Source: Hydrocarboniphaga daqingensis | GTDB taxonomy: Bacteria > Pseudomonadota > Gammaproteobacteria > Nevskiales > Nevskiaceae | Reading direction: 5' to 3' | NCBI RefSeq assembly: GCF_900129825.1 | Contig: NZ_FQWZ01000003.1 | Coordinates: 116,353-180,352 of the forward strand | DNA length: 64,000 nt | Shown here: positions 12,758 through 14,175 of the stretch, piece by piece | How the letters are laid out: every line of letters starts with the position of its first letter | Position numbering within the stretch: the first letter of the stretch is position 1 | Position numbers and translations under genes: made by a program | The notes under the pieces: model-generated | Databases searched by the model: none | The model's input: the letters and a program-made list of their open reading frames with translations, nothing else | What the model was told of the DNA's origin: nothing

Positions 12758-13432
12758 TCAGATGGAGACTTCGGAAAAGTCGCGCGCTTGCGGATGCGCC
12801 AGCGCCGGGCGCGCGATCGTGTCGCGGATCAGCTGGCAGGTTTGCATGCCGGCGCTGCGCGCCGCGTCGAGTTCTTCGCCGATGTCGGACAAAAACAACA
12901 CTTGCGCACCCGGCAGGCCGATCCGCGACAGGATCGTCCGATATGACGTCGCCTCGCGCTTGCCACCGACCTGCGTGTCGAAGTAGCCCGAAAACAGCGG
13001 CCTCAAGTCGCCCGCGTCGCTGTGGCCGAAGATCAGTTGCTGCGCTTCGACCGACCCCGACGAATACACGTACAGCTGCAAGCCCTGCTGATGCCAGCGC
13101 TGCAGGTAGACCGGCGTGTCGACGTAGACATGGCCTTTGAGTTCACCGGCCTGATAGCCGGTCTTCCAGATCATGCCTTGCAGCGTCTTCAGCGGCGTGG
13201 CCTTGCGGTCCTCGTCAATCCACTGCTCAAGCACACCGGCGGCCTCGTCGATCGACAGGTCCCAGCCGACGACGGCCTCGACGTCGTCGATCAGCGCCTG
13301 AACCAAGGGGTCGCCCGCCTGCTCGCGTAAGAACGAGCGCATATGCTGGCGCGCGTACGGAAACAGGCTTTTGTGGACGAACTCGATTGAGGAGGTGGTT
13401 CCCTCGATATCGGTGACGATGGCCTTAATCAT
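12758..13432 (-). CDS. mtnC: Enolase-phosphatase E1 (2,3-diketo-5-methylthiopentyl-1-P)
   Basis: MtnC is the bifunctional HAD enolase/phosphatase of the methionine-salvage pathway. The 224-residue protein begins MIKAIVTDIEGTTSS, the family's motif I, and contains YSSGSVEAQQ (motif II) and FLSDIGEELDAA (motif IV). The start at 13432 has a GGAGAG 5-10 bases upstream. It is the last gene of mtnB-mtnD-mtnC. The first ten codons and the ribosome binding site occur twice more upstream, between mtnD and mtnC, making two short coupled reading frames that end on the next copy's ATG. Confidence 0.96.
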   Translation of the reverse strand: MIKAIVTDIEGTTSSIEFVHKSLFPYARQHMRSFLREQAGDPLVQALIDDVEAVVGWDLSIDEAAGVLEQWIDEDRKATPLKTLQGMIWKTGYQAGELKGHVYVDTPVYLQRWHQQGLQLYVYSSGSVEAQQLIFGHSDAGDLRPLFSGYFDTQVGGKREATSYRTILSRIGLPGAQVLFLSDIGEELDAARSAGMQTCQLIRDTIARPALAHPQARDFSEVSI

Positions 13433-13461
13433 GTGCTCTCCAAAGCCATCCATGGCGCATC
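13407..13461 (-). repeat. mtnC 5'-end repeat, copy A (functional start)
   Basis: This 55-bp unit holds the ribosome binding site, the mtnC start codon at 13432-13430 and the first eight codons. It is repeated at 13517-13571 with one mismatch inside the unit. Confidence 0.9.
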
Positions 13462-13516
13462 AGTCCGGCCCGGCCCTCCGTGGCCGGACGTTCGTCTGTT
13501 TCCGGCTCGCCCTTCA

Positions 13517-13571
13517 ATATCGGTGACGATGGCCTTGATCATGTGCTCTCCAAAGCCATCCATGGCGCATC
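13517..13571 (-). repeat. mtnC 5'-end repeat, copy B
   Basis: Copy B is 110 bp upstream (in the mtnC sense) of copy A. Its ATG at 13542-13540 opens a 37-residue frame that begins like MtnC (MIKAIVTDIEG) and ends TDAPWMALEST. The TGA at 13431-13429 overlaps the real mtnC ATG as ATGA. A hairpin (8-bp stem 13463-13470 with 13482-13489) lies between copies A and B. Confidence 0.9.
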
Positions 13572-13577
13572 CGTTTC

Positions 13578-13604
13578 GATATCGGTGACGATCGCGCGGA
13601 TCAT
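13578..13604 (-). repeat. mtnC 5'-end repeat, copy C (partial)
   Basis: The third copy starts with ATG at 13604-13602, 4 bases after the mtnD stop, where mtnC would be expected to begin. It encodes MIRAIVTDIE and then runs into the shared segment TDAPWMALEST, giving a 21-residue frame. Its TGA at 13541-13539 overlaps the copy B ATG. Copies A, B and C differ by synonymous codon changes, such as ATC GAG, ATT GAA and ATC GAA for Ile-Glu. Confidence 0.85.
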
Positions 13605-13608
13605 CGGC

Positions 13609-14175
13609 TCAGGCCGTGATGTCGTAATGCGGCGCTTCGAGGCGCGGAAAGCGGTCGGCGATCTTGTCGCCGGTGAAGTTGGCAACCCAGCCTTCCGGCG
13701 TCGTGAACAAGCGGATCGCCTTCAGGTTCGGGTTGGGGCCCATGTCGAACCAGTGCGTGGTGTGCGCCGGCACGCTGAGCAGATCGCCTTTGACGCAGCG
13801 CATCGCGTAGACGTGGCCCTCCTTGCGGATGTTGAACAAGCCTTCGCCTTCAACAAAGAAGCGCACTTCGAAGTCGTCGTGCGTGTGCTCGTGCAGGAAC
13901 TTGTCGCGCATCGCGTCTTTTTGCGGATGGCTGGCATACAGGCTGATCACGTCGACGCTCTTGAAGCCGTAAGTCTTCATCAGCCGGTCGATCGAATCGC
14001 GGTACGCCTCGATCACTTCATCCTGGCTGGCTTGCGTGTCCAGCGGCTGGCTGGCTCCCCAGCGCTCGAAGCCGACGCCGATCTTGTCGAGCGCGCGGCG
14101 GATGTCGTCGTAGCCGGTGTGGATCGCGGCCGCCTGCTGGGCCGAACCTTCGGGATAGATGCGCAGCTCACTCAT
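13609..14175 (-). CDS. mtnD: Acireductone dioxygenase
   Basis: MtnD is the cupin metalloenzyme of methionine salvage; with Fe it yields the methionine precursor 2-keto-4-methylthiobutyrate. The 188-residue protein has the metal-binding set HEHTHDDFEVRFFVEG and the later histidine in PAHTTHWFDMG. The start at 14175 is supported by a GGAGAG 5-10 bases upstream and by its ATGA overlap with the mtnB stop; the longer frame upstream is mtnB antiframe. The stop is followed within 4 bases by the first of the mtnC-like starts. Confidence 0.96.
   Translation of the reverse strand: MSELRIYPEGSAQQAAAIHTGYDDIRRALDKIGVGFERWGASQPLDTQASQDEVIEAYRDSIDRLMKTYGFKSVDVISLYASHPQKDAMRDKFLHEHTHDDFEVRFFVEGEGLFNIRKEGHVYAMRCVKGDLLSVPAHTTHWFDMGPNPNLKAIRLFTTPEGWVANFTGDKIADRFPRLEAPHYDITA

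What the first reader, a model, noticed from the sequence alone, without database searches (positions are those of the whole stretch)
13429..13608. Triplicated mtnC 5' end makes a chain of coupled mini-ORFs
Between mtnD and mtnC the mtnC start region occurs three times. Copy C, just after the mtnD stop, encodes MIRAIVTDIE then TDAPWMALEST (21 aa, 13604-13539). Copy B encodes MIKAIVTDIEG... and ends with the same TDAPWMALEST (37 aa, 13542-13429). Each mini-ORF stop overlaps the next ATG as ATGA, so mtnD, C, B and mtnC could be one coupled series. The copies differ by synonymous changes (Ile-Glu is ATC GAG, ATT GAA or ATC GAA), which argues against an assembly artefact. The chain could lower or time MtnC synthesis, or be a remnant of recombination between mtnC alleles.
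Basis: seen in the sequence. Interest (0 to 1): 0.7.

Follow-up and report, generated by a model that had tools for sequence, protein, structure and literature searches.

The report
Hairpin repeat that duplicates gene ends
The three copies of the start of the mtnC gene come from a small hairpin-forming DNA repeat that lands inside genes, after two G's, and leaves a second copy of the gene's end, so the gene survives; related repeats have done the same to other genes in related bacteria, and here the leftover starts still read right up to the real start of mtnC.

Summary
In detail: three mtnC start regions, mini-ORFs of 21 and 37 aa, each stop overlapping the next start as ATGA. B and mtnC are separated by a short structured repeat (13510-13445); only its last hairpin seems to remain between C and B. 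Relatives of this repeat occur across the bacterial family (Solimonas/Nevskia relatives) and in some other genomes of the class. They sit just after GG (101 of 112), and 27 of 112 are flanked by direct repeats of 20-115 bp (control 3 of 890, all same-gene pairs), nearly always a gene terminus: mtnC, mutL, ddl, mnmG, leuC, lysS, leuS, a tRNA, a glycine riboswitch. At mtnC, 16 of 56 family genomes (6 of 12 genera) carry orphan start + repeat + real start at the same codon. So the triplication is an insertion scar, duplicated once more in this lineage. The coupling idea has partial support: in the 6 genomes whose repeat lacks a built-in TGA, all 7 orphan frames end 0 to +7 nt from the next start; in the other 10 they stop after 9-12 codons. 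The mobilising enzyme is unknown. The loops fit the CsrA consensus and resemble TwoAYGGAY RNA; binding is untested.

The parts
13609..14175 (-). mtnD (acireductone dioxygenase family, Pfam ARD), last complete gene upstream
   Evidence: Pfam E 6e-37
13539..13604 (-). copy C: orphan mtnC start, mini-ORF of 21 aa, stop overlaps start of copy B (ATGA)
13555..13576 (-). probable remnant of the repeat: only its 3' end with the third hairpin (model positions 88-109)
   Evidence: 10.1 bits, E 0.79 on its own; five weak matches elsewhere in the window score higher; the assignment rests on its place inside the 64-nt repeat, 94% identical to the second copy
13429..13542 (-). copy B: orphan mtnC start, mini-ORF of 37 aa running through the repeat, stop overlaps mtnC start (ATGA)
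13445..13510 (-). interspersed structured repeat, directly after GG 13512-13511 (codon 11 of copy B); first hairpin mostly lost; hairpins with loops ACGGAG and ATGGAT
   Evidence: cmsearch with model R1 39 bits, E 4e-7, best of 8 window matches; model from 33 family copies
13401..13464 (-). 64-nt direct repeat, right copy (repeat 3' end + spacer + mtnC start)
13511..13574 (-). 64-nt direct repeat, left copy
13438..13441 (-). GGAG, Shine-Dalgarno-like, before mtnC (the same motif at 13548-13551 before copy B)
   Evidence: sequence
12758..13432 (-). mtnC (HAD hydrolase; enolase-phosphatase by its name, recalled), functional copy
   Evidence: 224 aa; matched in 56 of 58 family genomes; Pfam Hydrolase E 9e-12

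Best explanation
A short (about 66-116 nt) interspersed repeat with a conserved hairpin structure inserted after the GG of codon 11 of mtnC. The insertion left the first 33 or so bases of mtnC on both sides, so the gene to the right of the repeat is whole and the left copy is an orphan start (shown by comparison; the event itself is inferred). In this lineage the unit [repeat 3' end + mtnC start] was then duplicated and most of the first repeat was lost, giving copies C, B and mtnC (inferred from the 64-nt repeat and the probable remnant). MtnC is made from the last start, which has its own Shine-Dalgarno-like GGAG (inferred). The two orphan ORFs give ribosomes coming from mtnD an almost unbroken path through the hairpins to the mtnC start, each ending on the next start. 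The comparison suggests that this path has been kept in the lineages whose repeat carries no stop (inferred, moderate support). What moves the repeat, and how the long duplication forms, is unknown. My preference is insertion with a long, variable target duplication, as opposed to replacement of the gene end by an imported allele.
For: Same structure, same codon: 16 of 56 family genomes with mtnC, 6 of 12 genera (which show 230-260 nt upstream; G001 of the own genus shows one start and no repeat). Five of 18 orphan copies (G013, G035, G063, first of G074, G076) differ from their own mtnC by 0-1 of 27 nt and from that of each of the 15 other genomes by 2 or more, and the repeats differ between genera: repeated insertion, or conversion. 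General behaviour: 27 of 112 repeat copies have an abutting direct repeat of score 14 or more, against 3 of 890 mismatched pairs, all at one and the same gene; 101 of 112 lie directly after GG (61 of 67 found by pattern, 40 of 45 found only by the model), background 8.6%. Family searches name the duplicated genes: mutL, ddl, mnmG, leuC, lysS, leuS, typA, nirB, an OmpR-type regulator; a glycine riboswitch. In 6 of 10 loci fetched from other families a tRNA 5' part is duplicated, once as seven tandem units. Structure: 28 consensus pairs, 15 with changes on both sides, while the hairpin-2 loop stays ANGGAY in nearly all. Coupling: 7 of 7 orphan copies without a built-in stop end 0 to +7 nt from the next start; gaps in the genus are 140, 137, 110 and 62, all 2 mod 3.
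Against: 85 of 112 repeat copies have no flanking duplication that reaches the threshold. In 8 of 18 cases the mtnC orphan is closer to another genome's mtnC than to its own, and in 4 it ties, as expected only if those are old or imported. At 3' ends of genes, where the orphan lies beyond the stop codon, the copies differ by 41 synonymous against 8 nonsynonymous codons, which duplication followed by drift of the orphan does not predict. Coupling by chance is not negligible: with base-permuted middles of the same length, 49-64% of sequences with a gap of 2 mod 3 end on the start, 1.1% for G026, and only about three lineages are independent. Neither PF01797 transposases nor RVT_1 reverse transcriptases go with the repeat.
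Confidence: 0.68

Rival explanations
1. Imported-allele model: the repeat marks the edge of incoming homologous DNA. The gene end to its right came with the repeat from a diverged relative, and the left orphan is the old resident end; there is no target duplication.
For: Orphan and functional copies differ mostly at third codon positions (91 of 126 differences in 36 pairs; 43 of 53 in the 12 pairs at gene 3' ends), as if both had been functional while diverging. Functional codons are rarer than orphan codons at 57 of 80 synonymous differences. Rare codons run about 8 codons into the gene body in 9 of 12 3'-end genes (p 0.004), against a milder decline at 91 control gene ends. Eight of 18 mtnC orphans are closer to another genome's mtnC than to their own.
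Against: In G013, G035 and G063 the two mtnC copies are identical over 27 nt; copies are exact over 115, 96 and 68 nt at mutL, ddl and the riboswitch, though the first two are tandem units. Locus by locus the orphan-functional difference in codon rarity is not significant (9 of 12, p 0.13), and some loci are not independent (leuC twice, one NAD synthase gene twice). At mtnC codon rarity does not differ between 16 genomes with and 35 without the insertion (p 0.68 and 0.65; 6 with remnants set aside). The same codon is used in six genera.
Confidence: 0.27
2. Regulatory leader: the chain C-B-mtnC was built by selection to lower or time MtnC synthesis.
For: Coupled geometry in 7 of 7 copies of the stop-free class, and gaps in the genus that keep the frame.
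Against: The same kind of insertion occurs in many other genes, at 3' ends and in tRNAs, where no leader ORF is possible; 10 of 16 mtnC cases are uncoupled.
Confidence: 0.2
3. CsrA/Rsm control: the ANGGAY hairpin next to the Shine-Dalgarno sequence, together with GGAG, is a CsrA site, so the repeat puts mtnC under CsrA and the repeats act as dispersed CsrA sites or sponges.
For: Hairpin-2 loop CANGGAYG mostly kept while stems covary; two CsrA-family matches over cut-off in this genome; TwoAYGGAY RNA, with like loops and tandem G-A, was proposed to bind CsrA (PMC4333381, passages).
Against: No binding data. In 12 of the 36 coding pairs the repeat lies antisense to the gene it touches. In the window the hairpin-2 loop is ACGGAG, and the predicted folds do not show the third hairpin as such; they are little or no stabler than shuffles (z -1.9, 0.1, -0.2).
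Confidence: 0.25
4. Assembly or sequencing artefact.
For: Short tandem repeats with hairpins are hard for short reads (general knowledge).
Against: Copies differ by synonymous changes, and 15 other genomes show the arrangement.
Confidence: 0.02

Closest known systems
TwoAYGGAY RNA (Rfam RF01731)
   Same: Two hairpins with AYGGAY-type loops and tandem G-A in a stem (PMC4333381 passages; consensus); listed for Gammaproteobacteria (PMC2864571, table row seen); also dispersed in this bacterial family.
   Different: The mtnC repeat does not match RF01731, nor did the repeats in the loci given to Rfam; the fixed GTGAG...CGAAC ends are its own; RF01731 copies read here lie inside another, longer repeat. 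No insertion into genes or duplication of gene ends is mentioned in the passages I saw.
REP / BIME sequences with RAYT transposases
   Same: Short, GC-rich, hairpin-forming, interspersed.
   Different: The IS200/IS605 family makes no larger target duplications (PMC2817692 passage); most REPs in the table rows seen there begin GTAG or GTGG; no PF01797 gene in several genomes that carry these repeats.
Integrative elements in gene 5' ends (IME in dusA, SXT in prfC)
   Same: Insertion in the 5' end of a gene restores the frame with a new, diverged 5' coding sequence (PMC8409611 passages).
   Different: Those elements carry an integrase and use one fixed target gene; this repeat is about 110 nt, too short for an enzyme, and hits many genes.
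Rickettsia palindromic elements / MITEs (recalled; review PMC10969869 seen in a listing only)
   Same: Small mobile hairpin DNA found in or next to genes.
   Different: Long duplication of gene ends and the GG site are not features that I recall for them.

Membership tests
TwoAYGGAY RNA RF01731 | match to the Rfam covariance model over its cut-off | tested here: not met
   In G000 two over-cut-off hits, on contigs 2 and 9, and one below cut-off on contig 2; none on contig 5 where mtnC lies. No Rfam hit to the repeat at gathering (13 sources with the window) or E up to 5 (12 loci). Three copies in G024 do overlap over-cut-off hits, and four elsewhere overlap weak ones of 23-25 bits.
TwoAYGGAY RNA RF01731 | two hairpins with AYGGAY-like loops | tested here: inconclusive
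   Consensus hairpin 2 has ANGGAY; the hairpin-3 loop was required by my own selection, so it is no test; in the window the loops are ACGGAG and ATGGAT.
TwoAYGGAY RNA RF01731 | tandem G-A in a stem | tested here: inconclusive
   GUGAG...CGAAC is invariant in the 33 aligned copies, but those were picked by patterns containing most of it; copies found only by the model often keep it.
REP with RAYT | RAYT-type gene (PF01797) in the genome, beside the repeat | tested here: not met
   No match in G000, G002, G003, G024, G074, G035, though 42 of 58 family genomes have one. In 50 PF01797 loci, left end and core together only in L202 (G010), about 1.1 kb from the gene; lone core motifs in 13 others.
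MITE | terminal inverted repeats and a cognate transposase | tested here: inconclusive
   Left and right ends are not inverted repeats of each other in the consensus (by eye); a cognate transposase was not searched beyond PF01797 and PF00078.
MITE or insertion element | target duplication on insertion | tested here: inconclusive
   27 of 112 against 3 of 890 control pairs, but 20 to 115 nt long and variable, 85 without, and divergence at some genes fits imported ends as well.
Retroelement | reverse transcriptase in genomes with many copies | tested here: not met
   PF00078 in 6 of 12 genomes; absent from G024, G011 and G025, which have 33-34 copies each.
CsrA-regulated leader | ANGGA in a hairpin loop near the Shine-Dalgarno sequence | tested here: inconclusive
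   Sequence present: GCGCC-ATGGAT-GGC 13458-13445, then GGAG 13441-13438; but the fold prediction favours another pairing.
CsrA-regulated leader | CsrA binds and represses | not testable with these tools
   needs protein and RNA
Translationally coupled ORF series | stop of each ORF at or over the next start, kept in relatives | tested here: inconclusive
   kept in 7 of 18 orphan copies (all of the stop-free class, 3 genera), absent in 11, which stop after 9-12 codons

The most novel reading that the evidence does not exclude
A new class of gene-end-duplicating mobile element: a non-coding, structured element of about 110 nt, found in several gammaproteobacterial families, that inserts after GG in genes (proteins, tRNAs, riboswitches) with a long, variable duplication. 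It therefore rebuilds the gene end it breaks, behaving like a bacterial SINE or a miniature cleave-and-rescue element. In some lineages its leftover gene starts have become ribosome relays into the gene.
Probability: 0.35. Interest if true: 0.88.

Novelty: new variant of a known kind. Interest (0 to 1): 0.74.

Why it matters
Short interspersed hairpins are usually thought of as intergenic. Here one family repeatedly lies inside the ends of housekeeping genes and tRNAs, and the gene is intact because its end is present twice. If confirmed, it gives a cheap route by which genes acquire new starts, leaders and stops; it explains odd truncated gene starts in annotations; and it raises a sharp question about the enzyme, because the two enzyme families that I tested (PF01797, PF00078) do not go with it. 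The mtnC site, used in six genera, is a ready test bed for target choice and for coupled reinitiation.

Tried and rejected
Simple CGCCATGGATGGC motif in the window: 8 matches with up to 2 mismatches, 5.4 expected, so the motif alone says nothing; the whole-genome contexts did. REP/RAYT origin: rejected. Reverse transcriptase: no association. Known Rfam family: none reached gathering or E 5 for the repeat in the sources given; RF01731 matches mostly other repeats in these genomes.

Idea that the repeat's TGA is selected as the stop of the upstream gene: open frames of 100 codons or more run into it in 45, 40 and 18 of 94 elements by frame, no clear preference; dropped. Idea that the rebuilt target is recoded to escape re-targeting: suggestive at 3' ends, absent at mtnC with a proper control (of its 35 genomes without insertion two are from other families of the order); left open, not claimed. 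First automatic frame calling chose wrong frames and was replaced by motif-anchored frames; one row there (L095, second) was mis-phased and re-entered by hand. Five of 41 repeat pairs were set aside as non-coding or unassigned (L109, L149, L153, L282, L268), and the GspF pair (L167) is doubtful. In one search nine mtnC loci were added by hand, so the 41 pairs are not a random sample; the count of 27 of 112 is without them.

Ten paper searches (two returned nothing) listed no paper whose title or abstract start describes such gene-end-duplicating repeats. The library lacks most subscription journals; I saw listings, and passages of four papers.

Full report
OBSERVATION. On the minus strand the order is mtnD (13609-14175), copy C (ATG 13604), copy B (ATG 13542), mtnC (ATG 13432 to 12758). 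The details of the finding hold. The strongest repeat is 64 nt long, 94% identical, 110 nt apart, and covers more than the mtnC start: it also holds the sequence upstream of it (GATGCGCCATGGATGGCTTTGGAGAGCAC).

WHAT LIES BETWEEN THE COPIES. The segment between B and mtnC holds hairpin-forming sequence. A like sequence occurs as a tandem pair elsewhere in the same genome (contig 2, near 592,254-592,420). Relatives gave the key. MtnC was found in 56 of 58 family genomes (not in G009 and G036), and I read 230-260 nt before its start in all 56. In 16 of them, in 6 of 12 genera, an extra mtnC start of about 33 bases ends at the GG of codon 11 (Asp-Ile-Glu-Gly) and is followed by such a hairpin sequence and then the real start: G000, G002, G003, G011, G013, G015, G021, G024, G026, G035, G063, G074, G075, G076, G079, G080. 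G074, like the window, has three starts. G001, of the own genus, shows one start and no repeat. Nearest named relatives of the protein are Solimonas, Nevskia and Polycyclovorans MAGs (73, 71 and 63% identity).

THE REPEAT FAMILY. A strict pattern for its first hairpin hit 23 of 58 family genomes. Thirty-three copies align: a stem with fixed ends GUGAG...CGAAC (tandem G-A; these ends were largely part of the search pattern), a variable hairpin whose nine pairs covary, a second hairpin with loop ANGGAY closed by C-G, a spacer of two lengths, and a third hairpin. RNAalifold gives 28 pairs, 15 with changes on both sides. The third loop was part of my selection and is no evidence. A covariance model finds 3-5 copies in each of four genomes of the own genus and 33-46 in six genomes of four other genera; these are lower bounds, since only 150 candidates per genome were scored. 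In the window it finds the repeat at 13510-13445 (39 bits, E 4e-7; first hairpin mostly lost). The 3' remnant 13576-13555 between C and B scores only 10.1 bits (E 0.79); five weak matches elsewhere in the window score higher, so it is assigned by its place in the 64-nt repeat.

GENERAL BEHAVIOUR. I took 112 distinct copies with flanks (67 from the patterns, 45 found only by the model). In 101 of 112 the bases just before the repeat are GG (61 of 67 and 40 of 45; background 8.6%). In 27 of 112 a direct repeat abuts the left end and recurs to the right of the repeat (score 14 or more); 3 of 890 mismatched pairs reach this, and all three are pairs at the same gene. Six of the 27 are at mtnC; 25 of the 27 are at the end of a gene or RNA as I read them, two unassigned (L109, L282). 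In the pairs I read, the right copy belongs to the intact gene and the left copy is the orphan. Family searches with the right-hand genes, mostly fragments cut at the edge of the locus, give as best match MutL, D-Ala-D-Ala ligase, MnmG, LeuC, LysS, LeuS, TypA, an OmpR-type regulator, NirB and a HAD phosphatase, and pterin dehydratase, Rdx (SelW-like), NAD synthase, HisI-type cyclohydrolase and T2SSF; L274 and L270 had no match. A glycine riboswitch reaches the Rfam threshold in both copies. The pattern for the first hairpin occurs in 13 of 274 genomes of the class (the one in G041 looks like chance). In 6 of the 10 loci fetched from them the repeat sits in a tRNA gene whose 5' part is duplicated, once as seven tandem units (complete tRNA found by Rfam in 5 of the 6; the sixth, L294, was not searched). 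In the other four I saw no such duplication on reading.

TANDEM CASES. In mutL (L283) and ddl (L262) two repeats in a row share their 3' part but have different first hairpins. So the newer copy took its 3' part from, or recombined with, the resident one. The window's C-B-mtnC series is of the same tandem kind.

HOW THE COPIES DIVERGED. In 36 coding pairs (400 codons; nine mtnC loci were added by hand) the differences fall 22/13/91 on codon positions 1/2/3, with 80 synonymous and 33 nonsynonymous codons. In the 12 pairs at gene 3' ends, where the orphan lies beyond the stop codon, they fall 6/4/43, with 41 synonymous and 8 nonsynonymous. Drift of a dead orphan should give many first- and second-position changes. 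The functional codon is the rarer one at 57 of 80 synonymous differences. At 3' ends the rare codons reach into the gene body (9 of 12 loci, p 0.004), but the orphan-functional contrast locus by locus is not significant (9 of 12, p 0.13; control ends); leuC and the NAD synthase gene each count twice. At mtnC itself there is no such effect (16 against 35 genomes). I leave this unexplained; imported alleles are the main rival reading. At mtnC, of 18 orphan copies five are within 0-1 of 27 nt of their own functional copy with the next best at 2-4 (G013, G035, G063, first of G074, G076), one more is slightly nearer to its own (G079, 5 against 6), four tie, and eight are nearer to another genome's copy. 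The five favour duplication within each lineage, or conversion; the eight may be old or imported.

THE COUPLED CHAIN. In 10 of 16 genomes the repeat starts GTGA, or the orphan has an earlier stop (G076); the orphan frame then ends after 9-12 codons, 59-106 nt before the next start. In the other six genomes (own genus G000, G002, G003; G013 and G079 of g11; G026 of g3) the repeat starts GCG, and every orphan frame (7 of 7, counting copy C, which is followed only by the remnant) runs on to a total of 21-48 codons and ends 0 to +7 nt from the next start. In the own genus the gaps are 140, 137, 110 and 62 nt, all 2 mod 3, so length changes kept the frame. Chance is not excluded: with the gap fixed at 2 mod 3, 49-64% of base-permuted middles do the same, 1.1% in G026, and there are only about three independent lineages; the test was devised after seeing the pattern.

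CONTROL BY CsrA. Loop and closing pair fit the CsrA consensus (recalled), two CsrA-family genes are present, and TwoAYGGAY RNA, which has like loops and tandem G-A, has been proposed to bind CsrA (PMC4333381, passages). The repeat at mtnC is not a member of RF01731 by model score. The predicted fold of the window segment puts the mtnC start region in another hairpin, in which the GATGGC of the repeat pairs with GCCATC of mtnC (z -1.9; two other segments z 0.1 and -0.2). Binding is untested.

KNOWN OR NEW. Gene-5'-end insertion with restoration by a diverged sequence is known for integrative elements (dusA, prfC; PMC8409611 passages). IS200/IS605-type transposition makes no larger duplications (PMC2817692 passage), and PF01797 genes are absent from several genomes with these repeats. 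I found no description of this repeat or of its gene-end duplications in the listings of ten searches of the open library.

CHECK.

Noticed in passing
G074 (59 matches), also G021 (14), G002 (9), G076 (7); G000 contig 2:413472-413855 and contig 9:100757: TwoAYGGAY RNA (RF01731) occurs here as part of another, longer dispersed repeat (CGTGCTCGGGG...GTGTGCTTTCT...), in G074 often as inverted pairs about 200 bp apart; the known RNA family may itself be an interspersed repeat.
   Followed up: partly
L295 (G100:C1:1015895-1016817): Seven tandem units of repeat plus tRNA 5' part (period about 145 bp) in front of one complete tRNA gene.
   Followed up: partly
L153:532-824: A glycine riboswitch aptamer interrupted and present again behind the repeat; the 68-bp repeat is exact, so this looks recent.
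   Followed up: partly
L283 and L262: Tandem repeats in front of mutL and ddl share the 3' half but have different first hairpins, a hint at how new copies are joined.
   Followed up: partly
L022 (G029), L013 (G031), L073 (G077), L083 (G062): Repeat or remnant between mtnD and mtnC without an orphan start in the stretch read, possible later stages of decay.
   Followed up: no
sufB-sufC junction in L100 (G002), L102 (G024), L119 (G021): The repeat lies at the same gene junction in three genera without a duplication over threshold; gene names by eye.
   Followed up: no
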